From the NCBI GenBank assembly GCA_902777355.1, contig CACYTU010000027.1:1-53080 (forward strand): 53,080 nucleotides of DNA, read 5' to 3'. Under the pieces are notes generated by a model that did no database searches, had not been told where the DNA came from, and was given only the letters and a program-made list of their open reading frames with translations. Source of the stretch: an uncultured Lachnospiraceae bacterium. Lineage in GTDB: Bacteria > Bacillota > Clostridia > Lachnospirales > Lachnospiraceae. Below are positions 19,849 through 50,782 of this stretch, one piece after another. The translations under genes and the position numbers were made by a program. Each line of letters opens with the position of its first letter. The first letter of the stretch is position 1.

Positions 19849-20970
19849 ATGAATTATAGCATAGTTTACCTTGGAATAGATGCACACATGCAATCTTTCT
19901 CTCTCTGCTGTTATACAAACGAAAAAGAAAAAGCTGAATATCCTCAGAAAGTTGATGGACATTACAGTAAAGTTATCAACTACATTGAGGCTATGCGTTT
20001 CCATTTCGGGGACGATGCATTGTTCATATGCGGTTATGAAGCTGGGAGCCTTGGGTTCACGCTCTATCATCAGCTCACTGATCATGGCGTAAAATGTGTC
20101 ATCCTTGCCCCTACTACAATGCCAACGCAGAAGGGCGGAAAGAGGATTAAAACTGATAAGCGCGACGCGGCATTGATCGCCAGATGCCTGGCTCATCGTG
20201 ACTACTCGCCAGTACATATCCCAACCGAACAGGATGAACAGACCAAAGAGTATATCCGTATGAGGGACGACCATAAACTTGCTCTCAAAAAGGTAAAACA
20301 GCAGATCCTTTCATTCTGTCTGAGACATAATTACCGTTTTGACGGTACAAAACACTATTGGACACAGGCGCATCTCAACTGGCTGAGGGCACTGAAACCA
20401 GAGGGTTTATACGCAGAGATTCTCATGGAGTATCTCCTGACTTATGATAACCTTACCAATAAGATCGAGCGGCTTGATAAGCGCATTGAGGAACTGGCTG
20501 CAGGTGATGCTTATCGGCAGAACGTTCATAAGCTGTCCTGTTTTCTTGGAGTCAAAACCATAACTGCACTTTCTGTGCTTACAGAAGTTGGTGATTTTAA
20601 ACGTTTTGCTTCTGCTCAGCACTTTTCCTCTTACATCGGGCTTACTCCCGGTGAGGATTCAAGTGGAAACGATAAGAAGCGTCTTGGGATTACCAAGGCA
20701 GGAAACCGTCATGTCCGCACTCTACTGGTGGAAGCAGCTCAAAACTACAGCCGGGGGCGTATTGGAGTTAAATCAAAAGCGCTCATGGCCCGACAGGAAG
20801 GAAATGCTCCCGAAGTGATAGCCTATGCAGACAAGGCAAACGAACGACTGCGCCGCAAATACTATCAAATGGTTCTTAAAAACAACAAAAAGACAAATGT
20901 TGCAAAAACAGCTGTTGCACGGGAACTGGCCTGCTTCATGTGGGGCATGGTTACTGGCAATGTTGTATGA
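19849..20970 (+). CDS. IS110-family transposase
   Basis: A 373-residue DEDD recombinase. The RuvC-like N-terminal part shows D11 in LGIDAH, E64 in GYEAG, and D103/D106 in KTDKRDA. A central coiled region follows. The C-terminal Tnp_20 domain has SYIGLTPGEDSSGNDKKRLG (about 261-280) with the conserved serines 271/272. Such enzymes use a structured bridge RNA made from the element's own non-coding end to choose target and donor sites. The gene appears intact. Its codon use and AT content differ somewhat from the neighbouring genes, as expected for an acquired element. Confidence 0.95.
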   Translation: MNYSIVYLGIDAHMQSFSLCCYTNEKEKAEYPQKVDGHYSKVINYIEAMRFHFGDDALFICGYEAGSLGFTLYHQLTDHGVKCVILAPTTMPTQKGGKRIKTDKRDAALIARCLAHRDYSPVHIPTEQDEQTKEYIRMRDDHKLALKKVKQQILSFCLRHNYRFDGTKHYWTQAHLNWLRALKPEGLYAEILMEYLLTYDNLTNKIERLDKRIEELAAGDAYRQNVHKLSCFLGVKTITALSVLTEVGDFKRFASAQHFSSYIGLTPGEDSSGNDKKRLGITKAGNRHVRTLLVEAAQNYSRGRIGVKSKALMARQEGNAPEVIAYADKANERLRRKYYQMVLKNNKKTNVAKTAVARELACFMWGMVTGNVV

Positions 20971-38470: not shown

Positions 38471-39487
38471 GATCCAGCCTTCGGGAGCCTCGATTCGTCC
38501 TGCCTGGATTCCGGTCAGGGTGTCATACAGCTTCTGGATGACGGGGCCGACCTTCTCCATGCCGTTGGAGAAGAAGATCTCTTTGCCGTGGTCGTTGATG
38601 CAGCCCAAAGGAGAGATAACAGCGGCGGTTCCGCACAGGCCTGCTTCCTTGAAGTTTCCTTCTTCCACTTCTGCCAGAGTGACCACACGCTCTGTGACCT
38701 TGAGTCCCAGATAATGCTCCGCTACATAGTGGATACTGCGGCGTGTGATGGAAGGCAGAATACTTTCAGATGCAGGAATGACCAGATTTCCGTCACCATC
38801 GACGAAGATGATGTTGGCGCCGCCGGTCTCCTCAATCTTGGTGCGGGTCGCGGGATCGAGATAGAGGTTCTCGGCAAAGCCTTCTCTGTGCGCCTGCATG
38901 ACGGGCAGAAGGCTCATGGCGTAGTTCAGACCGGCTTTGATGTGGCCTGTTCCCCGCGGTGCCGCGCGGTCATAATCACTGACCTTGATAGCGATAGGAG
39001 TCGCGCCGCCCTTGAAGTAAGGGCCGACAGGTGTCACGAAGACACGATACATATATTCCTCGGCAGGCTTGACGCCGATGACAGGGCTGATACCGAACAT
39101 CAGAGGACGCACATACAGAGTCGCGCCGGTGCCGTAAGGCGGAACCCATGCCGCATTGGCTCTGACTGTCTGAACGACAGAATCAATAAAGCGCTCTGCG
39201 GGGAAAGGAGGCATCTCCATTCTCAGTGCGGAATTGACCATGCGCTCCGCGTTGAGGTCAGGGCGGAAGCACACAATACGACCGTCCTCTGTGGTATAAG
39301 CCTTGAGGCCTTCAAAGACGGACTGCGAATAATGCAGGACACCGGCATCTTCGCTCATAACGATCTTGTCGTCACTGATCAGCGCGCCTTCATCCCATGC
39401 GCCGTCCTTATACATGGAAACATAGCGTTTATCTGTCACCATATATCCAAATCCAAGGTTACTCCAATCAATATTTTTCTTTTCCAT
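38453..39487 (-). CDS. ilvE: Branched-chain amino acid aminotransferase
   Basis: A PLP enzyme interconverting branched-chain amino acids and 2-oxoacids. The 344-residue product has the class IV fold with GLKAYTTEDGRIVCFRPDLN, RAAPRGTGHIKAGLNYAMS holding the PLP lysine, and ILPSITRRSIHYVAEHYLGL. I start at the ATG with GGAGG upstream, 19 codons inside the longest frame. It precedes iorA and iorB in the same direction, which suggests a link between amino acid transamination and 2-oxoacid oxidation (inference). Confidence 0.95.
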   Translation of the reverse strand: MEKKNIDWSNLGFGYMVTDKRYVSMYKDGAWDEGALISDDKIVMSEDAGVLHYSQSVFEGLKAYTTEDGRIVCFRPDLNAERMVNSALRMEMPPFPAERFIDSVVQTVRANAAWVPPYGTGATLYVRPLMFGISPVIGVKPAEEYMYRVFVTPVGPYFKGGATPIAIKVSDYDRAAPRGTGHIKAGLNYAMSLLPVMQAHREGFAENLYLDPATRTKIEETGGANIIFVDGDGNLVIPASESILPSITRRSIHYVAEHYLGLKVTERVVTLAEVEEGNFKEAGLCGTAAVISPLGCINDHGKEIFFSNGMEKVGPVIQKLYDTLTGIQAGRIEAPEGWIVEICK

Positions 39488-39810
39488 CTCGGTTCTATCC
39501 TCCCGCTGTCGCGTTACGGGGCGTCTGTCAGCGCAGCAGGTCATTAGCCTGATCTTCTGCTCCGGCTGCGGTGCCGGCTGTTCAACGGCCGGTCATGCGT
39601 CAGCATTCCGCCAAATTTATACTACGAAAGTCTATTATAAGACGCATATATCGATTTTTCCAGTCCAAATGCCAAAAAAGCGAATAAAAATATACATGTA
39701 TACAAAAAATCCTGTTATTATTCTCAGTTTTATACAGATTCAGCGGTTATTTTTCCGAAAAAAATACTGTATTCGTACCGGAACACCCCTGGTTTTCCTG
39801 AAATTGAAAG

Positions 39811-39855
39811 CAAAAAAAGAAGGCTGGCGGAATATCTTCACTTCGCCAGTCTTCT
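39811..39855 (-). terminator. Intrinsic terminator after the DegV gene
   Basis: AGAAGACTGGCG and CGCCAGCCTTCT form a 12-bp stem with one mismatch, followed on the minus strand by seven T residues, about 130 bases after the DegV stop codon. The rest of the 496-base spacer before ilvE is AT-rich, without a gene; the ilvE promoter should lie there. Confidence 0.85.
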
Positions 39856-39983
39856 GCACTTCCTTATAAATCCAAAAAATTAAATAGATAAAATCTTAAA
39901 AACCGGTCAGCCGGAAACCTCCGGGCGTTTTTTCAATCAACAAATTGCGAATCAGGGATTTTGCCACGCTGATCATATGCGGC

Positions 39984-40859
39984 TCAGGGGTCCAGAATGG
40001 CTGCCACTCCGACAAGGCCGGGGCCTGTATTGAGGGCGAGCGTCGCCGCGATCTGCTTCCTGTACATGACTTCAGCGCGGCCGCCCAGAGCCTGCAGGAT
40101 CATTTTTTCCATCTCCTCCGACTCTTTATCCGCGTCTCCGTGGCCTATTCCCAGCCAGACATGATGGTTCCCGCAGAATTTCACCATTTCCTTCAGCAGC
40201 TTCTCTTTTCCTTTTTTACTGCCGCGGATCAGGGAAACCGTGTAATAGATTCCGTCTTTATTGCAGGAAATGATGGGCTTGATCTTCAGAGCCTGGCCGA
40301 TCACGGATGAGACCGTCCCGATGCGACCGCCGCGCTTGAGATACTCCAGAGTATCCATGTAAAACATGACCTTGGAGTCATAGATTCTGTCCTGCAGCCC
40401 CTGGCAGACGTCGGCATAGGACATCCCCTCCGCAAGTTTGCGGGCCGCCCAGATTCCGAGCAGGCCGGAGGCCACCGAGATATTTTTTGTATCAAAAGCA
40501 AATACTTCCACCCGCTCCTGGTGGAGGGCAGCCAGGCGCACCGCATTCCAGGTTCCGCTCAGTCCGCTGGAAATACATACGGCTATGACCTTCCTGATCC
40601 CCGCTTCAGCCATCTCGTCCAGCTTGTCGATAACCTCCTGAAGAGAAGGAGTCGATGTCTTGGGATAATCTTTCGGGTAACGGTCGTAGACCATCTGGGG
40701 GTCTATATCCACTCCGTCCAGGTAAGCCTTTTCCTCGTAATCAATGTGCAGAGGAAGCAGCCACATACCGAATCTGTCAAGACATTCCTGCGCAATATCG
40801 CAGCCGGAATCCACCAATACAGCCGCCTTTTCATGGTTTGTATTCTCTTTTGAATCCAT
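39984..40859 (-). CDS. DegV family fatty-acid-binding protein
   Basis: A 291-residue soluble protein of the DegV/FakB family, which binds fatty acids and presents them to a fatty acid kinase in Firmicutes. Seen: VDSGCDIAQE (near 16), KTSTPSLQEVIDKL (near 67), CISSGLSGTWNAVRLA (near 96) and FYMDTLEYLKRGGRIG (near 165). No FakA-type kinase is encoded in the window. GAAAGGAAG precedes the ATG. The specific lipid is not predictable. Confidence 0.92.
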   Translation of the reverse strand: MDSKENTNHEKAAVLVDSGCDIAQECLDRFGMWLLPLHIDYEEKAYLDGVDIDPQMVYDRYPKDYPKTSTPSLQEVIDKLDEMAEAGIRKVIAVCISSGLSGTWNAVRLAALHQERVEVFAFDTKNISVASGLLGIWAARKLAEGMSYADVCQGLQDRIYDSKVMFYMDTLEYLKRGGRIGTVSSVIGQALKIKPIISCNKDGIYYTVSLIRGSKKGKEKLLKEMVKFCGNHHVWLGIGHGDADKESEEMEKMILQALGGRAEVMYRKQIAATLALNTGPGLVGVAAILDP

Positions 40860-41009
40860 CTCAACTTCCTTTCTGACAGCTGCCCCGTTTCCGAAGAAGT
40901 ATCAGAAATCATGTCATATAGGGCTTGTCCGGCATCATCTGGTTTTAATAAATACATCATATCATATGAACTGCGGATTCGCACCTGATCATTGCCGGAA
41001 AAGGCAACA

Positions 41010-41165
41010 GACTGAGGAGGAAGGGACGGTTCTTTGGGAGATAAGAGACAGCTTCTGGAGACAACGGAGACAGGGGACGGTTCTTCGTCTCCTGTCCCCT
41101 TCGAGAGGAGACGAAGAACCGTCCCCTGTCTCCGGAAGCTGTCTCCGCTCGTCTCCTGTTTCCGC
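41010..41165. repeat. Large GGGACGGTTCTT hairpin repeat (copy 2)
   Basis: A perfect 28-bp inverted repeat (41066-41093 with 41106-41133) is enclosed by a further 11-bp pair, GAGACAGCTTC and GAAGCTGTCTC (41045-41055 and 41135-41145), making a hairpin of about 100 bases. The arms carry GGGACGGTTCTTCGTCTCCT. It lies in the 316-base spacer downstream of the six-gene dehydratase-like operon, starting beyond its last stop codon. Confidence 0.9.
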
Positions 41166-41175
41166 TCAGAGGGAT

Positions 41176-41823
41176 TCAGGCCTGAATCAGCCCATATATA
41201 CCGGAAAAGAGATAGATAACATACACAATCAGCTGAAAGTATAGCAGCCACGCCCCCAGCTGGGCGCTGATCCTGACAGACAGAGCGCCCGAGAGAACCA
41301 GTGTGATCATTGCGGGAACCAGGGAGGATGCAAGTGAAAAGAGAATTGCCAGGAGCAGGGCGCTGTGAACCGGGAGAAGAGCTGAATAGCCCAGCACCAT
41401 CATGAGCGGCGCGCAGGGGGAAAAGCCGTAGGCCATACCCACTGCAAAAGAGGGAATCCTGCGGCTTCGGGAGGAACAGTGACGACAGTTTTTACAGCCC
41501 TTTCGTTCTCCTGCCCAGGATTTTAAAAGCCATAAAGCGGTGATGATCATGGCCAGGGAAACCAGTCTGCGCAGAAGGAAGCCCGCCAGGTCACCGCTTT
41601 CTGCGATCAATGTTTTGCCCAACAGGGCACCGCCGGTGCAGACTGCGGCAACTGCCAACATCTTTCCTATATAGAAAGCAGCAACCTGTGACATTGCATA
41701 GCGCATGTTTTTTCCTTCGGACAGGACATAGGTTGTAAGGAAAGCAGATGCGGATGAGCCGCAGCCGGCTCCGCATCCGATTCCGACTGCAGCGGCAGAG
41801 GTGAGCGCCTGAGATAACAGCAT
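41176..41823 (-). CDS. UreH/DsbD-like membrane protein with Cys-rich loops
   Basis: A 215-residue membrane protein with about six hydrophobic segments, resembling the sulfite exporter TauE/SafE, UreH or DsbD transmembrane family (AFYIGKMLAVAAVCTGGALLG, AYGFSPCAPLMMVLGYSALL). It has an N-terminal GCGAGCGSS and a cytoplasmic-type loop CKNCRHC (near 113-119), a possible metal or thiol site. Three bases after the activase gene, it ends the operon. Transport of a metal, a sulfur species or reducing equivalents are all open options. Confidence 0.72.
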   Translation of the reverse strand: MLLSQALTSAAAVGIGCGAGCGSSASAFLTTYVLSEGKNMRYAMSQVAAFYIGKMLAVAAVCTGGALLGKTLIAESGDLAGFLLRRLVSLAMIITALWLLKSWAGERKGCKNCRHCSSRSRRIPSFAVGMAYGFSPCAPLMMVLGYSALLPVHSALLLAILFSLASSLVPAMITLVLSGALSVRISAQLGAWLLYFQLIVYVIYLFSGIYGLIQA

Positions 41824-41826
41824 GGC

Positions 41827-42609
41827 TCAGCGTCTCCTTTCACAAGCTATAAGCGCGGCTCCGATGGCACCGTTGAACTGCGGCCAGGCTGCCACGTAGA
41901 CATCCCTCATCAGCTCATCCTCAAAGGCCCGGCGAAGGCCGATATTCATGGCACCGCCCCCGGTCATGAGGATATCGCCGCCCATTTCGTTTTTGCGGAT
42001 CATTTTCACGATTCTTCTGGCCATGGAGGCATGCATACCGGCGAGTATATCCCTGCGGTCGAATTTCCTGGCCACAAGGGAGATAACCTCGGACTGGGCA
42101 AAGACAACACAGGTGCTGTTGATATCGCATGGAGCTTTGCTCTCAAGGGAGATCGGCCCCACCTGGTCGATCGTGGTTTCCAGAATCTGCGCGATCACCT
42201 CCATGAACTTGCCGGTGCCCGCGGCACACTTATCATTCATGGAAAAATTCTTCACCCGGTAATGGTCGTCCAGATAGATCACTTTGCTGTCCTGTCCGCC
42301 GATATCCACGATGAGGCCGGGGCGGTACCCCCCGGGAGCTGTGATCCTGACGCCATAAGCATGAGCCGTGATCTCACTGACATCGTCATCGGCTGTTTCA
42401 AGGATTTTACGGCTGTATCCTGTGGCCATGGTGTAATCAATATGTGAAACACCGGCTTCTCTGCATAATTTATCCAGCAGGTACTTTGCCGAACCGTTAT
42501 TATCAATACCGGTAGACTTTACACCTGTGTTCAGCACCCTGCCCGTATGATCAATCAGGGCCGCCTTGAGGTAAGTTGAACCGCCGTCCAGTCCTGCATA
42601 TACACCCAT
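41827..42609 (-). CDS. 2-hydroxyacyl-CoA-dehydratase-type activase (BadF/HgdC family)
   Basis: A 260-residue ATPase with the actin/hexokinase fold. It drives one electron to a very low potential by ATP hydrolysis and passes it to a dehydratase or double-cubane partner. Seen: GLDGGSTYLKAALID (near 6), DIGGQDSKVI (near 101), NDKCAAGTGKF with the cluster cysteine (near 125), the second cluster cysteine in INSTCVVFAQSEV (near 164), and GGGAMNIG (near 217). Two cysteines per monomer would hold one [4Fe-4S] in the dimer. Five bases separate it from the Cys-rich dehydratase-like gene upstream. Confidence 0.95.
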   Translation of the reverse strand: MGVYAGLDGGSTYLKAALIDHTGRVLNTGVKSTGIDNNGSAKYLLDKLCREAGVSHIDYTMATGYSRKILETADDDVSEITAHAYGVRITAPGGYRPGLIVDIGGQDSKVIYLDDHYRVKNFSMNDKCAAGTGKFMEVIAQILETTIDQVGPISLESKAPCDINSTCVVFAQSEVISLVARKFDRRDILAGMHASMARRIVKMIRKNEMGGDILMTGGGAMNIGLRRAFEDELMRDVYVAAWPQFNGAIGAALIACERRR

Positions 42610-42614
42610 GATGA

Positions 42615-44054
42615 TTATCCTCCGTATTTGATCAGCTCGATGAATGCTTCCACGCGGATTCGCAGCTGTTCCACGTCTTCATCGTTATAGTCTGTTTCCA
42701 CCCGGATCAGGGGAATCCCCAGCTTTCCCATTTCTTCTTCCAACTGCCGGTATTCATAGTCATAGACCAGACAGCCCCGCAGCACATGATAGATCACCCC
42801 CTGGATCCGGTAATCCCTGATCAGCTGCCGGATCCTGTAGATCCGCCTCAGATTATCCGTAAAAGTGGGACAGGTACAGGGCCGGGTCGCACGGTTGGCG
42901 AGCGCGCGGATCATTCCGTCCACGGTCCGGTCACAGACAGCCGGCGGGTCATAAAAGCCTCTTTCACCCATACAGGTTTCATCCGCCGCCAGAAGGCCGC
43001 CCATACTTTCGATCAGCAGCGGAAGTTTGAAATTGGGAAAAATAACGGGAGAGCCGGTTAACAGGATCCTGGGGCGGTTCTCTTTTACTGCCATTTCTTT
43101 TGCTTTTGCCCGGCCTTCCAGTTCCCTGTTCAGCACGGATAGCTGTCTTGTCCATTCCGGCAGCCAGCTGTAGCTTAAGGCATTCATGAAAGCCATTGAA
43201 AAAGTCCCGCGTATGATCAGGGGATTTTTCCTGCGCAGATCGATAAATCTTGACAACTGAAACTGGGCATCCGCAGTCATCCGACAGGCCTCCGAGAGGC
43301 TGTCATAGTCCAGGGCTTTCCCGGTGACCTGCTCCAGACGGCTGCTGAAACGGTACAGTTCACCGACAAACCGCTCCATATCCTCGTCCCTGTCCCGGTT
43401 GGCAGGCACATGGAGAATGGCGGTCGGACGCCGCTCTCCCAGCCATCCTGCCAGTTTCTTTTTGCAGTCGCAGGTGACCGGCACAGCCATCAGGGAGCAG
43501 TTTTGATAAACCGGTATTGTGCCGATTTCTTCAAAGCCCATGACTGCCTTCACCAGGGGGCAGGCATCCTGGGGAGCCGTATCGTCGCCGATCCCAAATG
43601 CAGTACTGCTTCCTCCGCAAAGCTTCACGGGCATCCCTCCCTGGGCATAGATAATCTCGGGCGGCACCATTACACAAAAAGTGCCAATGGTCGGAATGCC
43701 CTGCGGTCTCTGTACATCTTTCCTGTCCGAAAAAATGTTTTCCAGTGTTTCCAGAAAGGGTTCTATGGCATCAGGTTTATGGCTGAGCTCCCTGATCTGC
43801 CGCAGCGTCTTTTGCGCAGCCGCTGTGCTTTTTCTCTCAAAGCGCTCCTGCTGCCGCAGCATTTTTTCTGCAGCTTTGTTTTCCTGCTCAAAACGCTCCT
43901 GCTGCCGCAGCATTTTTTCTGCAGCTTTGTTTTCCTGCTCAAAACGCTCCTGCTGCCACAGCATTTTTTCCACTGCTTTGTTCTCCAGCTCTAAGACTTC
44001 CTGCTGCCGCAGCTGCGCGGGATTCATCGGTGAATTATTCCTGTTCTCATTCAT
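42615..44054 (-). CDS. 2-hydroxyacyl-CoA-dehydratase-like subunit A (Cys-rich)
   Basis: A 479-residue member of the dehydratase D-subunit (HgdB/FldC/double-cubane) family and the likely electron acceptor of the activase. Cluster-ligand candidates are C165 in DACPLVKA, C195/C197 in TCDCKKK and C428 in VLRGCLVYDYE; further cysteines are at 127, 146, 186, 361, 374, 393 and 395. GSPVIFPNFKLPLLIES and RVETDYNDEDVEQLRIRVEA are family marks. The N-terminus carries three copies of a 17-residue unit, QQERFEQENKAAEKMLR (about 34-84), predicted helical and encoded by a 51-bp repeat. The substrate is unknown. Confidence 0.9.
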   Translation of the reverse strand: MNENRNNSPMNPAQLRQQEVLELENKAVEKMLWQQERFEQENKAAEKMLRQQERFEQENKAAEKMLRQQERFERKSTAAAQKTLRQIRELSHKPDAIEPFLETLENIFSDRKDVQRPQGIPTIGTFCVMVPPEIIYAQGGMPVKLCGGSSTAFGIGDDTAPQDACPLVKAVMGFEEIGTIPVYQNCSLMAVPVTCDCKKKLAGWLGERRPTAILHVPANRDRDEDMERFVGELYRFSSRLEQVTGKALDYDSLSEACRMTADAQFQLSRFIDLRRKNPLIIRGTFSMAFMNALSYSWLPEWTRQLSVLNRELEGRAKAKEMAVKENRPRILLTGSPVIFPNFKLPLLIESMGGLLAADETCMGERGFYDPPAVCDRTVDGMIRALANRATRPCTCPTFTDNLRRIYRIRQLIRDYRIQGVIYHVLRGCLVYDYEYRQLEEEMGKLGIPLIRVETDYNDEDVEQLRIRVEAFIELIKYGG

Positions 44055-45780
44055 TGTCCACGGCCTCCTTACCGGATGAGGAAGTATAATCCTTCATAAA
44101 TTTCATCCGGGACGCGGTATAGATCTTTTTCCCGGCCAGGGTCATAAACAGGGCTCCATCCTCCGGGCAGCGGCGGATACATTCTCCGCAGAAGATGCAG
44201 TCCGAAGCAGTCACATCGATGGACAGCTCGTTTTTTCCCTGCCGCACTGTAAATATGGACTTGATCCCCATAGGGCAGGCTTCGTAGCAGGCTCCGCATT
44301 CCGTACAGGCGACAGCATTTTTCCTGAGCCGGACCAGGCTGAACCGGTGAGGCAGCCCCAGCAGGTAACCCATGGGGCAGATATTGCAGAAACACCGACG
44401 CTTAAAGAAGCCGCTCACAAGCACAGCGACCATCATAAAACCGCTGAAATACAGACTGGTCTTGAACCCCGCCAGCGCAGGTGACAGAGTGATGGCCGGG
44501 CAGAGATCACAAAAGCTCCCGCCCACGAGGCCGATTCCCAGAAAGATCAGCAGCATGATCCATTTGATAAAGCGGAGCCAGGCGTATAGCTTCTCATTCA
44601 GAGGGATCCCCTCTGTATGCGTTTTCTGTCTCAGCTCATGCATCACATCCTGCACAAAGCCCAGAGGACAGACGAAACCGCACAGCAGCCTTCCCAGGAG
44701 CGCAGCACAGACAATAAAACTGCCCGCAAACCAGAGAATCTCATCCACGGGCGATCCGGCCAGCACATCCAAATGGCTGAACAGGTAGCAGCCTGCGCCT
44801 GTGCCCTGATCCAGATTGTAGGGACAGGATAAAACCGGCAGCTGGATGGAAGAGAAGGTTGTTCCCAGGATCCTTCCTCCCCAGATCAGCAGTACGAAGC
44901 TGACGGCCATGATGATCCACCGGACCATTGAAAAGCCAAAACGCAGCCGGATCCGTCCTGATCCGATTGCGGATTTCCCCGTCCGGCCTGCCGTCACCCC
45001 GCTCCTGCGATACAGGTGCTTTCTCAGCAAAACATCCAGAATAATACATACCAGAGAGATCCCCAGGATGATGGTGAAAGGCATCATTGCCTGCAGCCAG
45101 CGAAGTGAGAATACTGTATTGTCCTCCCAGAGATAATGAAGCCGGTATGTGTGCTCCGCGTCAGGGCGATAGAGGAAGGTCACCCCGGAGCGGAAATCGT
45201 TCAGTGACAGTTGGGAGGAAGACCCGCTCCCGTCCGTTGTCAAAGCGACTTGCTTCCCGTCGTTCAGCAGGGCTGTAATCCCGGCGCCTGTCAGCGGGCT
45301 GCCGTTCAGGGTGAAGGTGAATGTGCTGTGATCCGTCATTGAGGCTTCAAAGGGCAGGCGGTCGTCCAGAAAAGCATTGCCGCCGGACACATACTCCTGG
45401 GTGTATTCCATATCTGTCTTGGCTGCTTCAATCACCGTTTCGATGATACCGTCTTTATCCAGATCCGCTGTGTACGGATCCCGGACCGCGGCCAGGGTTC
45501 CCAGGCAGTCCCCGGGAAAAGATGCCGCGCTCCCCTCCGGGATTTCAGCCATACCTTCCAGGGTCAGCCCGTAGGCCGTGACATCGCTTCCTGCTCCGTG
45601 CAGAGTCAGGGCGTCTCCGCTGTATGAAAATGAGAGCTGCTGACCATCGTCTGCAGACTGCAGAGATGCTCTTTCCAGCGGTTCCCTCCAGGTGAAGAAG
45701 GGTATTTCAGCAGCGAAATATGCCAGCACGGCAAACACCAGGGCGTCCATGGCCGCAGTCAGTATCTTCTTCGTTTTCAT
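44047..45780 (-). CDS. NapH/NosR-like membrane polyferredoxin
   Basis: A 577-residue membrane iron-sulfur protein. After an N-terminal membrane segment there is an extracytoplasmic domain (about 40-225), then five or more membrane segments with two C-x3-CP motifs (CGFVCPLG and CNICPMG) of the NapH/NosR/CcoG type. At the C-terminus are two ferredoxin motifs, CTECGACYEACP and CIFCGECIRRCP. It should carry electrons at the membrane. Its start overlaps the paralogue B stop, and its end overlaps subunit A by eight bases, so it is built into this operon. A role as electron donor to the activase is inference. Confidence 0.88.
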   Translation of the reverse strand: MKTKKILTAAMDALVFAVLAYFAAEIPFFTWREPLERASLQSADDGQQLSFSYSGDALTLHGAGSDVTAYGLTLEGMAEIPEGSAASFPGDCLGTLAAVRDPYTADLDKDGIIETVIEAAKTDMEYTQEYVSGGNAFLDDRLPFEASMTDHSTFTFTLNGSPLTGAGITALLNDGKQVALTTDGSGSSSQLSLNDFRSGVTFLYRPDAEHTYRLHYLWEDNTVFSLRWLQAMMPFTIILGISLVCIILDVLLRKHLYRRSGVTAGRTGKSAIGSGRIRLRFGFSMVRWIIMAVSFVLLIWGGRILGTTFSSIQLPVLSCPYNLDQGTGAGCYLFSHLDVLAGSPVDEILWFAGSFIVCAALLGRLLCGFVCPLGFVQDVMHELRQKTHTEGIPLNEKLYAWLRFIKWIMLLIFLGIGLVGGSFCDLCPAITLSPALAGFKTSLYFSGFMMVAVLVSGFFKRRCFCNICPMGYLLGLPHRFSLVRLRKNAVACTECGACYEACPMGIKSIFTVRQGKNELSIDVTASDCIFCGECIRRCPEDGALFMTLAGKKIYTASRMKFMKDYTSSSGKEAVDNE

Positions 45781-47015
45781 TGCGCGATCCGCACCCTTTC
45801 CTGATTCCTCTGGCCGAGCATTTCAGCAAAGGCCTCCAGACGGATGCGAAGCTGTTCCACATCCTGCTGCTGATAATCCGTCTCCAGACGAATCACCGGA
45901 ACGTCATATTCGGTAGCCAGAGCCTCAATCTTCGGCAGTTCAAAATCATATTCAATCTGGCCTTTCAGCACATGCCAGACGATTCCACTGACAGGGAGGT
46001 AGTCCAGCCTTTCCTGCACAGCGGCCAGCAGGCCTTTATTTGTGATCCAGGCCCCTGAAGTTTCCATTCCCATACGCAGATCAGCCATCCGCCTGAGAAT
46101 CCTGTTTACAGAATGCGAACGGGCCGCAGAGGGAATATCCGGCTGCAGAGCCACTGAGTCCACCCGGTCCGCCAGATAAAGTCCGGAGGCCTCCAGGAGA
46201 TTTGGCAGTTTTTCGTTGGGGAAGATCACGGGAGACCCTCCCATCAGGATCCATGGACGCCGGTCCTGCTGATGAAAATACTGCCTGGTCCGGTTTCTCA
46301 TCTGCATCGTGAGATTATGCAGATGGGTCACCCATTCCCGCCGGTCAGGAATATACCAGACGCTTTCCAGAATCATATCCCTTAAAGCCGGTGACATAAT
46401 CCCTGTATCCTGCCAGGCAGTGTGTTTGAACGCTGCCGCAGCCCTCCGGACCTGTTCTTTTCGCCGAATCGCCTGATTCAGCCTTCGTGCGGAAAAGTGT
46501 ATGCGGGTATGATCCGATACAATCTCTGCTGTTCTGCGCATTTCAGAAGCCCAGACATCCCTGGCTTCAGCAGTGTCGTAACGCGGCGGAATGTCCACCG
46601 CGACAACCCTGATACCGTTCCCCCTGAGCAGGGATGCCAGTTTCCGGCGATTATCGGAAGAAAGAGCCATAACCACTATTGCATCCCGGACAAGGTTAAA
46701 TCTGTCGTTCAACAGCCATCCGCAGGCGGAGCGGCTGACCGGGTCTGCGTCCCTGGGGAGCAGGGCGTCTGACCAGTGAGTTGTCTCCAGGCTTCCTCCG
46801 AGGATAAAACGTGTATGATCCGACAGTGCCATTGCCAGTTCCTGGGGAAAATCTTCACCCAGAACAATCAGGGAAGGTTTTTCCTGTTTCAATGTCTTTG
46901 CGCTGAAAGAGTCTTCCAGCCTGTCAAGAAACCAGTCCACTTCCGTAAAGCCGCAGTGTTCACGCCCTGCCCGCTCCAGGGCTGAGCAGATTTCATAGCT
47001 CAATTTTTTCATCAT
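45777..47015 (-). CDS. 2-hydroxyacyl-CoA-dehydratase-like subunit B (cysteine-depleted)
   Basis: A 412-residue paralogue of subunit A. Shared: GGSPVIFPNEKLPNLLEASG, GIVWHVLKG and RLETDYQQQDVEQLRIRLEA. Only the first cluster-type cysteine remains (SACGWLL). The position of TCDCKKK reads SSDNRRK, and C428 of subunit A is replaced by glutamine (VLKGQIEYDFE). It therefore probably cannot hold the usual cluster and may be a structural or substrate-binding partner. I start at the ATG at 47015, with GGGAG upstream and one base after the previous stop, rather than at an overlapping upstream start. Confidence 0.85.
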   Translation of the reverse strand: MMKKLSYEICSALERAGREHCGFTEVDWFLDRLEDSFSAKTLKQEKPSLIVLGEDFPQELAMALSDHTRFILGGSLETTHWSDALLPRDADPVSRSACGWLLNDRFNLVRDAIVVMALSSDNRRKLASLLRGNGIRVVAVDIPPRYDTAEARDVWASEMRRTAEIVSDHTRIHFSARRLNQAIRRKEQVRRAAAAFKHTAWQDTGIMSPALRDMILESVWYIPDRREWVTHLHNLTMQMRNRTRQYFHQQDRRPWILMGGSPVIFPNEKLPNLLEASGLYLADRVDSVALQPDIPSAARSHSVNRILRRMADLRMGMETSGAWITNKGLLAAVQERLDYLPVSGIVWHVLKGQIEYDFELPKIEALATEYDVPVIRLETDYQQQDVEQLRIRLEAFAEMLGQRNQERVRIAQ

Positions 47016-47016
47016 T

Positions 47017-47829
47017 TCAGCTCCCATAGGTTTGTTGATATTCAATAGTTGCATTCTCGGCCTTGGAACGGCCTTTCATGCATCGGGGAGAAAGCAGGAT
47101 GCAGTTACGATGGCAGCCGCCGCAGCGCAGCATGGATAAGAACTGCTGCAGGGTGGGAACATCGCCGGAAGGCTCTTCCTGCTGCTGCAGGGCAGGCACA
47201 TCTCCGGAAGATTCTTCCTGCTGCTGAAAGGCGGTCACATCGTCGGATAGCTCTTCCTGCTGCTGCAGGGCGGGCACACCTTCGGATGGTTCTTCCTGCT
47301 GCTGAAAGGCGGTCACATCGTCGGATAGCTCTTCCTGCTGCTGCAGGGCGGGCACACCTTCGGATGGCTCTTCCTGCTGCTCTCCGATCACGCTTTCATA
47401 ACTATCTTTCAGCGCGGAATCCTCTTCTAACTCTTCTTCCTCTTCAAACTGAGTATTGCCGTTTGGGAAATATGAATCAGTATTTTCATTGTTATCCGGA
47501 GCTGAATCCTTATTCCGTCTGCCGTGCCGTCCGCCGCCTTTGCCGCGCCTGCCCTCCCGGGAAGGCTGCACGTCAGGGAATGTATCTTCATTGCTGCTGT
47601 CCTGTCCGTATATGTTGTTTTCCTGAGGAAACGGCTGCTGCTCCTCTGTTTTTTCCTCTTGAATCTCCTCTGTATCCGCGTTTGCGACAATCGCAGCCGG
47701 TGCAATCTGCCAGGCTTCTGCTGCCTGCGCGGCAGGACTTTGGCCTCTCAGTACCTGGGATATACTGCTGTAAAGCAGGCACACACTGAATGTCCCCGCA
47801 GCAAAACAGGAAATGATTTTTCCTCTCAC
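47017..47829 (-). CDS. Secreted or membrane-anchored repeat protein with C-terminal Cys cluster
   Basis: Function unknown. With the GTG start at 47829, seven bases after AGGAGG, the product has 270 residues. The N-terminus looks like a signal sequence or anchor (RGKIISCFAAGTFSVCLLYS). An acidic and basic low-complexity region follows, then six 13-residue units alternating EEPSEGVPALQQQ and EELSDDVTAFQQQ. The C-terminus has CGGCHRNC and a further cysteine (C-x2-C-x3-C-x6-C), suggesting an iron-sulfur, heme or metal site. It heads the six-gene operon, one base before subunit B. A longer start at 47883 is less likely. Confidence 0.7.
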   Translation of the reverse strand: MRGKIISCFAAGTFSVCLLYSSISQVLRGQSPAAQAAEAWQIAPAAIVANADTEEIQEEKTEEQQPFPQENNIYGQDSSNEDTFPDVQPSREGRRGKGGGRHGRRNKDSAPDNNENTDSYFPNGNTQFEEEEELEEDSALKDSYESVIGEQQEEPSEGVPALQQQEELSDDVTAFQQQEEPSEGVPALQQQEELSDDVTAFQQQEESSGDVPALQQQEEPSGDVPTLQQFLSMLRCGGCHRNCILLSPRCMKGRSKAENATIEYQQTYGS

Positions 47830-48009
47830 CACATAACCTCCTGTTAAAGACTGGCATTTACAGATGCCCGGCATAAGCGTCACTGTCTGCCAAAGTCATC
47901 GTATGGGCAGCATTATCTCTGCCTCATCCGGTACTGCGCCTTATGGCTTACAGATACCTCACAGGCCTATTATGGTGTGTTAACCTTTGATGAACCTTAA
48001 AAGAGAAAA

Positions 48010-48260
48010 AAAAGAAACGGTTCTTCGTCTCCTCCGCGCGCAAGAGGAGACAAAGAACCGGTTACTGATCTGTACACGCCCTCTCGAAGGGCGTGTACAG
48101 ATAACCGGCGAAAATCCCATTCCAAATCGCTGCGCGATGGGATTTTCGTCGTAAAACTCGGGTTTTTCGCGAAAAAAACACTGCTTCGCATTGTCGCGAA
48201 AAACGCCTCGAATTTCGTGCCAGTCTGAAAAGTAACAAGAACCGTCCCCTGTCCCCTCCC
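48010..48260. repeat. Multi-hairpin element with GGACGGTTCTT ends (copy 3)
   Basis: Between divergent genes lies a chain of inverted repeats. GTTCTTCGTCTCCT pairs with AGGAGACAAAGAAC. ATCTGTACACGCCCT pairs with AGGGCGTGTACAGAT (15 bp). CGAAAATCCCAT pairs with ATGGGATTTTCG. GTTTTTCGCGA pairs with TCGCGAAAAAC. ACGGTTCTT near the left end and AAGAACCGT near the right end give it inverted borders, so it may be a composite mobile-type element. Confidence 0.8.
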
Positions 48261-48274
48261 TGTTCCCTTCAAGC

Positions 48275-48304
48275 TTGCCAAAATACCTGAATCTGAATTA
48301 TGAT
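48275..48304 (+). promoter_or_regulatory. Probable promoter of the RlmI-like gene
   Basis: TTGCCA (48275-48280) and TATGAT (48299-48304) are separated by 18 bases, just outside the multi-hairpin element; a CAGGAGG ribosome site and the ATG at 48341 follow. Confidence 0.6.
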
Positions 48305-48340
48305 TGATAAGTCTAAAGACCAGACAGGAGGAATGATCCG

Positions 48341-49780
48341 ATGACAGACATCAGGAAAGAAATAAATGAAAATACAAATCTTGCCGACAGCGCTTGTGCC
48401 AGAGTAAAAAAAGGCGGTGCCCGCTCTTTTAAGGCAGGCGGTCTCTGGATTTATGACAATGAAATTGACCGCATAGACGGAAATCCGGAAGATGGAGATA
48501 TTCTGGCAGTGGAAGATTTTGACGGATATTTTCTCGGATGGGGCTTTATCAACCGGGCTTCCACAATCATGATCCGCATGCTGAGCAGGAAAAAAGACCA
48601 GCGCATCACCCCCGCGTTTTTGGAGGAACGCGTGCGCTGCGCATGGGAATACAGGAAGAAAGTGATCGACACCTCTTCCTGCCGTGTGATCTTCGGGGAA
48701 GCTGATTTTCTGCCCGGAATCACCATCGATAAATATGAAGACGTGCTGGTCGTGGAGTCTCTGGCTCTGGGGATTGACCGGCTCAAGCCCATGATCCTCT
48801 CCGCTCTCAAGAAAGTGCTTGCTGAAGACGGGATCAAGATCCGCGGAATCTATGAGCGCAGTGACGCCAAGGTGCGCGAAAAAGAAGGGCTTCCCCGGGT
48901 CAAGGGTTTCATCGGCCAGCCTTTTGACACACTGGTTCCGATCACAGAAAACGGTGTGCGCTATATGGTTGACGTCGAAAACGGACAGAAGACAGGCTTC
49001 TTCCTGGACCAGAAAGAAAACAGGCGCGCGATCGCCCGGCTCTGCCCGGGGGCCCGGGTTCTGGACTGCTTTACACACACAGGCTCCTTCGGTCTCAATG
49101 CAGCCCTTGCCGGAGCAGCCGAGGTCACCAGCGTCGACGCCTCTGAACTCGCCATCGAACAGGCAGCACAAAATGCCGGGCTGAACGGATTTGTACCTGA
49201 ATCCCCCCTGCAGGAATCCGATGTCCCTGTTTTACCTCAGGAATCCATTAAACCAGCTTCAGTTCAGAAATCCGCCATTCCGGCTTCTAATCAGGAATCC
49301 GGCACTCCGGCTTCTACTCAGGAATCCAAAGCCACCGCTTTGGCTCAGGCAGAAGCCTCCGCTTCCCGCTGGCTGGTCAACGGGGCCGGCACACGCCTGC
49401 AGTATCTGTGCGCGGATATTTTTGACCTGCTTCCGGATCTCCACAAAAAGGGGGAATTCTACGATGTCGTCATCCTGGATCCTCCCGCTTTCACAAAATC
49501 CCGCAACTCCATCAAAGCTGCCGTGCGTGGCTACCGCGAGATCAATCAGCGCGGCCTGCGCCTGGTCAGGGACGGAGGCTTCCTGGCCACCTGCTCCTGT
49601 TCGCATTTCATGGACCCTGATCTCTTCCGTGATACCATCGCAAAGGCTGCAAAAGACGCCCATAAGCGCCTGCGCCAGATCGAATTCCGCACCCAGGCAC
49701 CCGATCACCCCATCCTCTGGGCTTCGGAGGAGTCCTATTATTTGAAATTCTACATCTTCCAGGTCGTGGAGGAGAAATGA
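48341..49780 (+). CDS. RlmI-like 23S rRNA (cytosine-C5) methyltransferase with repeat insertion
   Basis: A class I SAM-dependent methyltransferase with an N-terminal PUA domain (ARSFKAGGLWIYDNEI). The middle has NGQKTGFFLDQKENR, and the SAM-binding motif VLDCFTHTGSFGL is near 244. VILDPPAFTKS (near 383) and the catalytic TCSCSHFM (near 425) follow. Family members are about 390-400 residues; this one has 479. About 45 extra residues (near 288-332) consist of five 9-residue QESIKPASV-type units inserted in the Rossmann core after LNGFVPE, encoded by a 27-bp repeat. The frame stays open, so the protein may still work. Confidence 0.92.
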   Translation: MTDIRKEINENTNLADSACARVKKGGARSFKAGGLWIYDNEIDRIDGNPEDGDILAVEDFDGYFLGWGFINRASTIMIRMLSRKKDQRITPAFLEERVRCAWEYRKKVIDTSSCRVIFGEADFLPGITIDKYEDVLVVESLALGIDRLKPMILSALKKVLAEDGIKIRGIYERSDAKVREKEGLPRVKGFIGQPFDTLVPITENGVRYMVDVENGQKTGFFLDQKENRRAIARLCPGARVLDCFTHTGSFGLNAALAGAAEVTSVDASELAIEQAAQNAGLNGFVPESPLQESDVPVLPQESIKPASVQKSAIPASNQESGTPASTQESKATALAQAEASASRWLVNGAGTRLQYLCADIFDLLPDLHKKGEFYDVVILDPPAFTKSRNSIKAAVRGYREINQRGLRLVRDGGFLATCSCSHFMDPDLFRDTIAKAAKDAHKRLRQIEFRTQAPDHPILWASEESYYLKFYIFQVVEEK

Positions 49781-49906
49781 GCCGGATCGTCCGGTATTTA
49801 TGAGGATGGCAGGCATCAGAAAAGTAAATCAGAGGAAACGTCAATTTCCCCGGACGCTCCGGACCATCCAGCCCCGATGCGCAAAATACAAATACAGGAG
49901 AACCCC

Positions 49907-50782
49907 ATGCATCACTATGTCTATCTGGTCAATAGATTTAATCTGAAAGAAAGCACGGATGAAATGATCCGGAGACTGAAAGAAGTCTCGGATGAGTATG
50001 GCCGGGACTACGAGATCATTGTCAATGAGACTCCCGAAGAGGCGGGCGCCGTCATGTCACGCTTTCAGGACACAGAATATATTATCACGGCCATCGGCGG
50101 AGACGGCTCGATCAACCGCCTGCTCAATGACCTTGTCGGCACAAAAAATATTCTCGCTTTCATTCCCGCCGGCACGGGAAACGACTTTGCCCGCACCTGC
50201 ATGAACGACATGGAGGACGGCATCCACGACATCGATCTCATACGGGTCAACGACCGCTACTGCGTCAATGTGGTCTGCTTCGGAATCGACGCGGATATAG
50301 CCAACGATGACACATTCATCCACAACCGTCTCATCCCCCGCAATATGCGCTTCAACGCGGGCGTCCTCTATCATTTTCTGAATCATAAAAAGGGACGTCT
50401 GCTCAAAGTCAAATACGAAGGCAGGACGGAGAAGCGCCGTTTTACAACCATTATCGCGGCTAACAGCCAATACTACGGATGCGGTTACAATGTATCTCCC
50501 GAGAGCCGTCTCGACGACGGATTGATGGAGGTTTTCCTGGTCAGAAGCCTCAGCAGACTGAAAATCGCAAAGCTTATTCTGTCCATGAAAAACGCAGGCC
50601 ACCTGAATAATCCGTCTGTGAAAATTTTAAAGACAAAAAAAATAACGATCACCGCCGCCGGGGAGTTCAAAGCCAATATCGACGGAGAGCCGCTGCCGGG
50701 CAGACATTTCGAACTGGAGATGGTCCCCCGTGCCATCCGCATTGATTTCAACCGGCAGTTTATCGAACGCGTCAGAATGTGA
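49907..50782 (+). CDS. Diacylglycerol/lipid kinase family protein (YegS/DagK-like)
   Basis: A 291-residue kinase that should phosphorylate a lipid such as diacylglycerol in phospholipid recycling. The catalytic-domain signature AIGGDGSINRLLNDL (near 62) and FIPAGTGNDFAR (near 86) are clear, followed by the beta-rich C-terminal domain with LDDGLMEVFLV and FKANIDGEPL. I prefer the ATG at 49907, with AGGAG upstream, over the start ten codons earlier. It follows the methyltransferase gene by 126 bases on the same strand. Confidence 0.93.
   Translation: MHHYVYLVNRFNLKESTDEMIRRLKEVSDEYGRDYEIIVNETPEEAGAVMSRFQDTEYIITAIGGDGSINRLLNDLVGTKNILAFIPAGTGNDFARTCMNDMEDGIHDIDLIRVNDRYCVNVVCFGIDADIANDDTFIHNRLIPRNMRFNAGVLYHFLNHKKGRLLKVKYEGRTEKRRFTTIIAANSQYYGCGYNVSPESRLDDGLMEVFLVRSLSRLKIAKLILSMKNAGHLNNPSVKILKTKKITITAAGEFKANIDGEPLPGRHFELEMVPRAIRIDFNRQFIERVRM

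What the first reader, a model, noticed from the sequence alone, without database searches (positions are those of the whole stretch)
41176..47829. Six-gene operon for a putative membrane-linked, ATP-driven low-potential reductase
A secreted Cys-rich repeat protein, two dehydratase-D-like paralogues, a NapH/NosR-like polyferredoxin, a BadF-type activase and a Cys-rich membrane protein follow each other with overlaps or gaps of at most five bases. Activases of this family deliver electrons to (R)-2-hydroxyacyl-CoA dehydratases, benzoyl-CoA reductases or double-cubane proteins (known). Here there is no CoA transferase, ligase or acyl-CoA gene nearby, while a membrane electron carrier is built into the operon. 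I infer a reductase of unknown substrate fed from the membrane.
Basis: partly seen in the sequence, partly recalled or inferred. Interest (0 to 1): 0.82.

Follow-up and report, generated by a model that had tools for sequence, protein, structure and literature searches.

The report
Membrane-wired ATP-driven double-cubane reductase operon
Gut and rumen bacteria share a tightly conserved gene set of unknown purpose that appears to couple an ATP-powered, extremely strong reducing enzyme to an electron wire through the cell membrane and to a small tethered, probably iron-sulfur, protein outside.

Summary
The six genes are real and lie as stated. The order A, NapH-like, B, activase, DsbD_2-like is conserved: of 80 named loci found through B alone, 54 of the 56 with room carry all five and 53 keep the order. 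Most come from rumen or gut Clostridia. B resembles the double-cubane protein DCCP and keeps its cysteines. A has the same fold but almost none of them: at ten cluster positions 57 of 65 A proteins have no Cys and 8 have one. The 'secreted Cys-rich repeat protein' is a membrane tether with a variable linker and a conserved CX2CX3CX6C head; elsewhere this head ends DUF4405 membrane proteins. No CoA gene was recognised nearby. Best reading: the activase charges B with ATP, A docks it to the polyferredoxin, and electrons pass between cytosol and an outside carrier. The gene set is well supported; cofactors, direction and substrate are inferred. It fails the ArsG test for ArsEFG and the cut-offs of CoA dehydratases. 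New variant of a known kind.

The parts
47017..47829 (-). g1: N-terminal membrane anchor (residues 5-23), acidic repeat-containing linker, conserved C-terminal CX2CX3CX6C head (Cys 236, 239, 243, 250 of the 270-aa form)
   Evidence: motif in 44 of 46 called g1 proteins
47143..47381 (.). tandem repeats (39 bp x 6.1; overlapping row 78 bp x 2.9 at 47159-47381) coding part of the g1 linker
45777..47054 (-). A: HGD-D/DCCP-fold subunit nearly without cluster cysteines, 425 aa
   Evidence: PF06050 139.6 bits; Cys at the ten B cluster-type columns: none in 57 of 65, one in 8 of 65; model pLDDT 92.3, closest fold DCCP 6eno TM 0.82
44047..45780 (-). g3: NapH/NosR-like polyferredoxin, 577 aa: predicted TM1, exofacial beta domain (about 25-225), five further TMs, two C-terminal [4Fe-4S] motifs
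   Evidence: Fer4 hits and TIGR02163 77.3 bits; 16 Cys invariant in 71 of 71; model fold search finds DUF4198/Zcp-type proteins
42615..44054 (-). B: DCCP-like, putative double-cubane subunit, 479 aa
   Evidence: NF040772 306.9 bits, cut-off 350; 6eno E 1.3e-59 with shared Cys; nine Cys in 76 of 76
41827..42609 (-). g5: BadF/DCCP-R-type ATP-dependent activase, 260 aa; Cys128, Cys161 and Cys167 invariant
   Evidence: PF01869, TIGR00241 over cut-off; the three Cys in 65 of 65
41176..41823 (-). g6: DsbD_2-like membrane protein with C17/C21 near the start, C137 in a predicted TM and a CX2CX2C loop (110/113/116)
   Evidence: PF13386 matched by 12 of 23 family members but not by the window protein; C17, C21, C113, C137 in 66 of 66

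Best explanation
The operon encodes a membrane-wired double-cubane electron system. SHOWN: the gene set and order, the families, the invariant cysteines in B, g3, g6 and the g1 head, and their near-absence in A. INFERRED: activase g5 takes electrons from reduced ferredoxin or flavodoxin and uses ATP hydrolysis to push them into an [8Fe-9S] double cubane in B. The cluster-free paralogue A fills the second half of the DCCP-type dimer and serves as the docking or gating half that couples B to the membrane. The cytosolic 2x[4Fe-4S] end of g3 exchanges electrons with A-B and carries them through the membrane to its exofacial cysteines, where g1, a four-Cys (probably [4Fe-4S]) head on a 47-200 residue acidic arm, and the g6 thiol relay hand them to an extracytoplasmic partner. 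My preferred direction is outward, cytosol to cell surface: fermenting hosts have abundant cytosolic reduced ferredoxin and I know of no exofacial donor at that potential (recalled), and DsbD/CcdA-type relays move reducing power outward (recalled). The final acceptor is unknown. Rough odds: architecture (ATP-charged B plus cluster-free A coupled to g3) 0.6; outward direction given that, about 0.6.
For: Order kept in 53 of 54 loci holding all five genes, out of 56 with room; the loci were found through B only. Median gaps between neighbours -4, -8, 5, -4 bases. B is closest to DCCP among solved structures (6eno E 1.3e-59, HadC-type 3o3m_B 1.6e-17) and shares its Cys. A adopts the DCCP fold (6eno TM 0.82) with the Cys replaced, in the commonest case C127 by G, C146 by L, C165 by D, C186 by a gap, C195 and C197 by S, C361 by S, C393 by D, C395 by S and C428 by Q. 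A forms one group in the tree, 97/89 support. A lies directly before NapH with a 4-base overlap, and in L066 A-NapH-g1 is a divergent unit of its own. In other genomes the g1 head ends four membrane proteins matching DUF4405, three above the Pfam cut-off, which fits an exofacial redox module. A response regulator and a histidine kinase (families checked on one of each) adjoin many copies: 23 of 33 and 23 of 30 loci with room. No MenA over cut-off in the own genome, against an ordinary quinol-oxidising NapH.
Against: I found no biochemical study of any component. The window's B misses the NF040772 cut-off (306.9 of 350), g3 misses the NapH cut-off, and g6 in the window has no family match by itself. 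Eight of 65 A proteins keep one Cys at a cluster-type column. That g1 binds Fe-S rather than zinc is not shown. No complex was modelled. g1 is not found near 7 of 33 loci with ample room; one of these, L061, has it with A behind an insert, so g1 is not obligatory or is replaced in the rest. L084 lacks A and NapH beside B and its assembly gives no A. In L026-L028 one or two small ORFs stand between A and NapH. The window operon has no two-component genes beside it. The own genome is only 84% complete, so the lack of MenA is weak. Direction of flow rests on recalled physiology.
Confidence: 0.42

Rival explanations
1. Cytosolic substrate reductase fed inward: g3 (with g1 and g6 outside) passes electrons to the activase, and A-B reduces a small or xenobiotic substrate in the cytosol, the substrate sitting in A's emptied cluster pocket. 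This is.
For: DCCP itself reduces acetylene, hydrazine and azide (passages of PMC11971306). A has conserved polar residues at or near the former cluster site (D104, D134, K138, S333, K364, Q366) that could bind a ligand. A two-component system beside many copies suggests induction by an outside signal.
Against: Activases normally take electrons from cytosolic ferredoxin or flavodoxin (recalled), so a membrane feed is not needed. The seven gene clusters shared most widely around B are HGD-D, NapH, activase, g6, g1, kinase and regulator; the next are an ORF on the other strand (13 sources) and one that looks like an aldo-keto reductase by eye (10 sources), so no substrate enzyme is a constant neighbour.
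Confidence: 0.27
2. ArsEFG-type nitroaromatic-arsenical reduction and efflux: B and activase reduce, g6 exports.
For: ArsEFG also combines an activase, an HGD-D protein and a small membrane protein (recalled; of Chen, Zhang and Rosen 2019 I saw only the title in reference lists). g6 is about the size of the ArsG model (225 positions).
Against: The ArsG model NF040495 does not match the own genome at E<=10 nor any of 23 g6 proteins at E<=10. In 196 class genomes none exceeds its cut-off, though 70 have weaker matches; of 14 control genomes 5 ring, one over the cut-off. ArsEFG as recalled has no A, NapH or tethered head.
Confidence: 0.05
3. An (R)-2-hydroxyacyl-CoA dehydratase or benzoyl-CoA reductase whose CoA transferase or ligase lies elsewhere.
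For: PF06050 and BadF families are those of these enzymes.
Against: B scores 85.7 of 700 (HadC) and 55.5 of 453.8 (BzdN). A has lost nearly all cluster Cys. The own genome's other HGD-D pair, on contig 36, lies beside its own activase and a CoA-transferase-like gene; its members score best to BzdN and HadB, both below cut-off. I recognised no CoA gene by eye among the 30 listed neighbour clusters.
Confidence: 0.06
4. A maturation or repair system: the low-potential electrons and the g6/NapH relay reduce metals, disulfides or cofactors of exported redox proteins (as CcoG/RdxA or DsbD do, recalled) rather than a metabolic substrate.
For: NapH-like plus DsbD_2-like proteins outside an enzyme context. 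The fold search with the g3 model finds metal-binding Zcp and DUF4198 proteins (9 matches at E<=0.001, best E 1.6e-4; rank 3 a Ni-bound DUF4198 protein, TMt 0.51).
Against: Pfam finds nothing in the N-terminal 271 residues of g3 even at E<=10. 41 of 71 relatives have a short g3. No client protein is a constant neighbour among the listed clusters.
Confidence: 0.17

Closest known systems
Double-cubane cluster protein DCCP and its reductase DCCP-R (Carboxydothermus hydrogenoformans; PDB 6eno, 7yyl)
   Same: HGD-D fold, conserved cysteines, adjacent BadF-type activase; closest solved structures of A and B by sequence and of A by fold.
   Different: DCCP is a homodimer with a cluster in each half (PMC11971306 passages). 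Here a paralogue A nearly without cluster Cys accompanies B, two further Cys (C186, C197) mark B, and a membrane protein pair and often a tethered head belong to the set.
Class I benzoyl-CoA reductase BzdNO and (R)-2-hydroxyisocaproyl-CoA dehydratase HadBC
   Same: Heteromeric HGD-D pair charged by an activase; one subunit can lose part of the cluster (PMC11971306 passages).
   Different: There both subunits keep Fe-S clusters and bind CoA esters; here A keeps at most one cluster-type Cys and no CoA gene was recognised nearby.
NapH / NosR / CcoG membrane polyferredoxins
   Same: Transmembrane helices, C-x2/3-CP motifs, two C-terminal [4Fe-4S] motifs.
   Different: Below family cut-offs (NapH 77.3 of 213.05; NosR 36.5 of 1000; CcoG not tested); partner is a putative ATP-driven cytosolic reductase.
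DsbD/CcdA (DsbD_2, PF13386) thiol relays
   Same: Small multi-TM protein with Cys near the first TM and in a later TM.
   Different: Extra CX2CX2C loop; the window's own protein is not recognised by Pfam.
ArsEFG
   Same: Activase, HGD-D protein and small membrane protein together (recalled).
   Different: g6 does not match the ArsG model; A, NapH and g1 have no counterpart there (recalled).
DUF4405 proteins ending in the same four-Cys head (L145, L146, L147, L150)
   Same: Same CX2CX3CX6C-type head at the C-terminal side of a membrane domain.
   Different: Attached to a DUF4405 domain (weak prokaryotic cytochrome b561 matches) and not in this operon.

Membership tests
Double-cubane anaerobic reductase (NF040772 / DCCP) | score over the curated cut-off | tested here: not met
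   window B 306.9 of 350, A 133.8; 19 of 19 scanned B proteins match the model, individual scores not shown
Double-cubane anaerobic reductase (NF040772 / DCCP) | cysteines of DCCP | tested here: met
   B shares the 6eno Cys at 127, 146, 165, 195, 361, 395, 428 in the alignment; these are in 76 of 76. Which six are ligands in DCCP I did not read
Double-cubane anaerobic reductase (NF040772 / DCCP) | adjacent BadF-type activase | tested here: met
   75 of 75 loci with room
Double-cubane anaerobic reductase (NF040772 / DCCP) | homodimer with two double cubanes | not testable with these tools
   the linked paralogue A suggests a heteromer
(R)-2-hydroxyacyl-CoA dehydratase | HadB/HadC model cut-offs | tested here: not met
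   85.7 of 700 and 21.8 of 750 for B
(R)-2-hydroxyacyl-CoA dehydratase | CoA transferase encoded nearby | tested here: inconclusive
   none recognised by eye in the window ORFs or the 30 listed neighbour clusters; a full family scan of neighbours was not run
Benzoyl-CoA reductase class I | BzdN/BcrC model cut-offs | tested here: not met
   55.5 of 453.8 and 35.5 of 421.15
ArsEFG | ArsG transporter (NF040495) | tested here: not met
   no match at E<=10 in the own genome or in any of 23 g6 proteins
NapH/MauN ferredoxin-type protein | TIGR02163 cut-off | tested here: not met
   77.3 of 213.05
NapH/MauN ferredoxin-type protein | CP motifs in the membrane part and two C-terminal [4Fe-4S] motifs | tested here: met
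   Cys 367/371, 424/427, 465/468, 492-502, 528-538 in 71 of 71
DsbD_2 (PF13386) | Pfam match over gathering score | tested here: inconclusive
   12 of 23 members match at E<=1, two seen above the cut-off (54.0 and 46.3 of 24.9); the window protein does not match
BadF/HgdC activase | PF01869 and TIGR00241 over cut-off | tested here: met
   178.9 of 31.5 and 209.3 of 125.4

The most novel reading that the evidence does not exclude
An ATP-driven outward electron exporter. A cluster-free DCCP paralogue turns a double-cubane reductase into a membrane-docked pump that lifts ferredoxin electrons to very low potential and sends them through a polyferredoxin to a four-Cys head on a long acidic arm able to reach through the Gram-positive wall. 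It would be a form of extracellular reduction in fermenting gut bacteria that needs neither c-type haems nor quinones.
Probability: 0.27. Interest if true: 0.88.

Novelty: new variant of a known kind. Interest (0 to 1): 0.64.

Why it matters
DCCPs carry the double cubane and are ATP-dependent reductases whose biological function is unknown (PMC11971306 passages). Here a DCCP-like protein is fixed, in a conserved order, to a membrane electron path and often to an exofacial carrier in rumen and gut bacteria, including the named strains Ruminococcus albus AR67 and KH2T6 and Anaeromicropila populeti 743A. That gives a tractable handle on what such enzymes are for. If electrons go outward it would be a new way for fermenters to reduce things at the cell surface; if inward, a gut reductase system of unknown substrate. 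A cluster-free subunit would also be a natural experiment in how this fold evolves.

Tried and rejected
CoA dehydratase and benzoyl-CoA reductase: tested by family models and by the own genome's second pair, rejected. ArsEFG: tested by the ArsG model, rejected. Quinol-fed NapH: no MenA over cut-off in an 84% complete genome (two weaker matches, best 41.5 of 102.15 bits), weak. RNA elements in 39000-50000: 0 Rfam matches at gathering scores. Plasmid carriage: A finds 16 of 72,556 plasmid records; the 10 listed are at 25-26% identity and bear double-cubane, YjiM or dehydratase names or none.

Papers: the listings (20 rows at most each) showed no paper that I recognised as describing this gene set. 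Passages only were seen of PMC9144182, PMC8419240, PMC7306483 and PMC10134865, and passages plus section 8 of PMC11971306. The two DCCP papers (PNAS 2018, 2022) are not held.

An idea that A-NapH and B-activase-g6 are lost as separate modules was mostly given up. L061, which seemed to lack A and NapH, has both about 20 kb upstream. L084 does lack them beside B: a transposase-like ORF (by eye) stands directly upstream of B instead, and its assembly gives no A. L066 has the two sets on opposite strands.

Rows dropped or limited: the search for related loci kept 80 of 145 confirmed loci, from 195 pattern matches. A first, cruder ORF call found all five genes in 54 of 85 sources (80 loci, four others and the window); one search repeats this by HMM on the 80 loci. 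Conservation counts used A 65 of 70, B 76 of 77, NapH 71 of 82, activase 65 of 68, g6 66 of 68 and g1 46 of 46 called proteins, cut by length, window included. The tree lost 14 of 21 generic HGD-D loci because no long open frame was found on the locus plus strand. L025 and L114 look like the same contig (both 14,863 bases, same gene lengths), so the 85 sources hold one duplicate. In one search no match outside the own genome exceeds 175 bits (own A 536) in 398 phylum genomes; that sample is the limit of the statement.

Mended on checking: invariant Cys in g3 number 16, not 18; A was first written as having no cluster Cys in any relative, run for the check, shows one such Cys in 8 of 65.


Full report
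OBSERVATION. The six ORFs lie head to tail on the minus strand between 47829 and 41176, with overlaps of 38, 4 and 8 bases and gaps of 5 and 3. Two are HGD-D paralogues, one is a BadF-type activase, one carries NapH-like and Fer4 matches; g1 and g6 have no match at E<=0.1. The flanking genes are a DegV-family protein (39984-40859) and an RlmI-like RNA methyltransferase below the equivalog cut-offs (48341-49780, opposite strand).

CONSERVATION. A search of 196 order genomes with A found 19 with a match, many of them weak or generic; four (L025, L026, L027, L028) have the order A, NapH-like, B, activase, g6, with one or two small ORFs between A and NapH in L026-L028. A scan of the genome collection (one genome for each of 84,980 species, by the tool's description) with an alignment of B alone gave 195 pattern matches and 145 confirmed relatives, of which 80 were kept. 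Neighbours played no part in the choice, so their conservation is a fair test. HMM searches of the 80 loci, within 7 kb of B, found A in 69, NapH in 78, activase in 78, g6 in 75, g1 in 54, response regulator in 35 and histidine kinase in 35. Where the contig leaves room: NapH 71 of 73, A 66 of 68, activase 75 of 75, g6 66 of 66, g1 26 of 33, regulator 23 of 33, kinase 23 of 30. All five core genes are present in 54 of 56, and 53 of 54 keep order and strand; the exception, L066, has A-NapH-g1 as a divergent unit. Of the two loci without A and NapH, L061 has them about 20 kb upstream; L084 has a transposase-like ORF upstream of B and no A in its assembly. The HMMs were built from these same loci and four others. 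Record titles name mainly Clostridia, Ruminococcus, Lachnospiraceae and Oscillospiraceae, many from rumen or gut samples (the rumen origin of the RUG names is recalled), with strains such as Ruminococcus albus AR67 and KH2T6, Sarcina sp. DSM 11001 and Anaeromicropila populeti 743A, plus three Coriobacteriaceae and one Atopobiaceae MAG. The window itself has no two-component genes beside the operon.

A AND B ARE NOT ALIKE. B matches the double-cubane model best (306.9 bits; cut-off 350) and DCCP among solved structures (7yyl E 3.1e-60, 6eno E 1.3e-59). Cys 127, 146, 165, 186, 195, 361, 393, 395 and 428 occur in 76 of 76 B proteins and Cys 197 in 73. C186 and C197 have no counterpart in 6eno in the printed alignment. 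A has the same fold: its model (pLDDT 92.3) matches 6eno with TM 0.82, and profile comparison with B gives E 2.8e-70. At the ten B columns, 57 of 65 A proteins have no Cys and 8 have exactly one (six at C361, two at C195). The commonest A residues there are G (64 of 65), L (39), D (64), a gap (63), S (42), S (52), S (23), D (39), S (60) and Q (64). The window A has G66, L85, D104, gap, S133, N135, S300, E331, S333 and Q366. In a tree of 48 rows A is one group (97/89), 17 of 19 B rows are another (100/99), and six generic rows with DCCP a third (93/99). The two distant B rows are not firmly placed, three rows have long branches, and 14 generic rows were lost.

THE MEMBRANE PARTS. In g3, 16 Cys are invariant in 71 of 71: an outer pair (319, 331 by my topology), three C-x2/3-CP pairs and eight Cys for two [4Fe-4S] clusters. 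Hydrophobicity gives six helices; the positive-inside reading that puts the ferredoxin end in the cytosol is mine. The fold search with the g3 model (pLDDT 78.2) finds Zcp and DUF4198 metal-binding proteins (9 matches at E<=0.001, best 1.6e-4; the Ni-bound DUF4198 protein at rank 3 has TMt 0.51), by aligned length most likely to the exofacial domain, but Pfam finds nothing in that part even at E<=10. 41 of 71 g3 proteins are short forms and 30 long. g6 keeps C17, C21, C113 and C137 in 66 of 66; 12 of 23 family members match DsbD_2, the window protein does not.

THE TETHERED HEAD. g1 has an anchor (hydrophobicity at least 1.3 in 43 of 44), an acidic linker of 47-200 residues (median 109; net negative in 44 of 44) and a conserved head whose last Cys lies 17-24 residues before the end. 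The motif CX2CX3CX6C occurs in 44 of 46 called g1 proteins and in 4 of 1155 other called proteins of at least 60 residues in these loci. g1 lies upstream of B on the same strand in 23 loci, downstream in 23 and on the other strand upstream in 8. Of 391 class genomes 8 have a head at E<=1e-5, of 295 order genomes 6, the own genome counted in both; one search lists many weaker matches that I did not follow. Of the 8, three (own, G372, G478) are g1 of this operon; four (G531, G222, G437, G447) lie in membrane proteins matching DUF4405, three above the Pfam cut-off; one (G093) is at the start of a protein with winged-helix matches below their cut-offs. The G531 protein has two heads. A weak match to DUF3079 (21.6 of 27 bits at best) is a lead only. 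Whether the head binds Fe-S or zinc is not known.

MECHANISM. For the family (PMC11971306 passages, and recall): an activase uses ATP to push electrons into the HGD-D dimer, DCCP carries one double cubane per subunit, and its biological function is unknown. Here the second subunit has lost its cluster ligands, and the pair is encoded with a transmembrane polyferredoxin. I infer that A became the docking half and that the partner of B is g3 rather than, or besides, a small molecule. Outward flow is favoured because the usual donor of activases is cytosolic ferredoxin, plentiful in fermenters, while I know of no outside donor of that potential; this is recalled physiology, not a result. The rivals are inward feeding of a cytosolic reductase (0.27), a maturation or repair role (0.17), a CoA enzyme (0.06) and ArsEFG (0.05).

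KNOWN OR NEW. The soluble parts belong to known superfamilies, so this is a new variant of a known kind: ATP-driven HGD-D reductases. What I did not find in the paper searches listed under Tried and rejected is the fixed set with a cluster-free paralogue, a polyferredoxin, a DsbD_2-like protein and a tethered four-Cys head. The held library lacks most subscription papers, including both DCCP papers, so absence there is weak evidence.

LIMITS. No complex was modelled; no expression data were available; the own genome is 84% complete with 5% contamination. dN/dS well below 1 for the five other genes and for the g1 head shows they are maintained, not what for.

Noticed in passing
L205 (Ruminococcus albus AR67, G1053 contig 46:40300-60200): Gene A is in two pieces about 17.6 kb apart, with a serine-recombinase-like ORF near one end of the stretch between them and a tyrosine-integrase-like ORF near the other (labels by eye). 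Whether the element excises is unknown.
   Followed up: partly
L206 and L207 (RUG041 MAG, G1050 contig 30): About 18 kb with serine-recombinase-like and mobilisation-like ORFs near NapH, and others (by eye), separate NapH from B, a second interruption of the operon.
   Followed up: partly
L084 5161-6267: A transposase-like ORF (by eye) stands directly upstream of B where A and NapH are expected.
   Followed up: no
L145 7444-8760, L146 7941-8993, L147 8096-9190, L150 9113-9931: Membrane proteins matching DUF4405 (L150 below the Pfam cut-off) carry one or two copies of the same four-Cys head, possibly an undescribed exofacial module.
   Followed up: partly
L148 7433-8098: A protein with sub-threshold winged-helix and MarR matches starts with a relative of the g1 head, possibly a metal- or redox-sensing regulator.
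   Followed up: no
L025 5050-9918 (looks like the same contig as L114): The operon in this MAG looks decayed: a TAG stop inside A and a shortened activase frame of 212 aa.
   Followed up: no
window 43829-44013: A 51-bp tandem repeat (3.6 copies) in the N-terminal part of B; relatives were not compared repeat by repeat.
   Followed up: no
L029 (own genome contig 36): A second HGD-D pair beside a BzdQ-like activase (402.6 of 380.2 bits) and a CoA-transferase-like gene below cut-offs, its members best to BzdN and HadB below cut-offs; perhaps a 2-hydroxyacyl-CoA dehydratase.
   Followed up: partly
window 19849-20970: A transposase-like ORF (IS110-type by eye) lies in the window far from the operon.
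   Followed up: no
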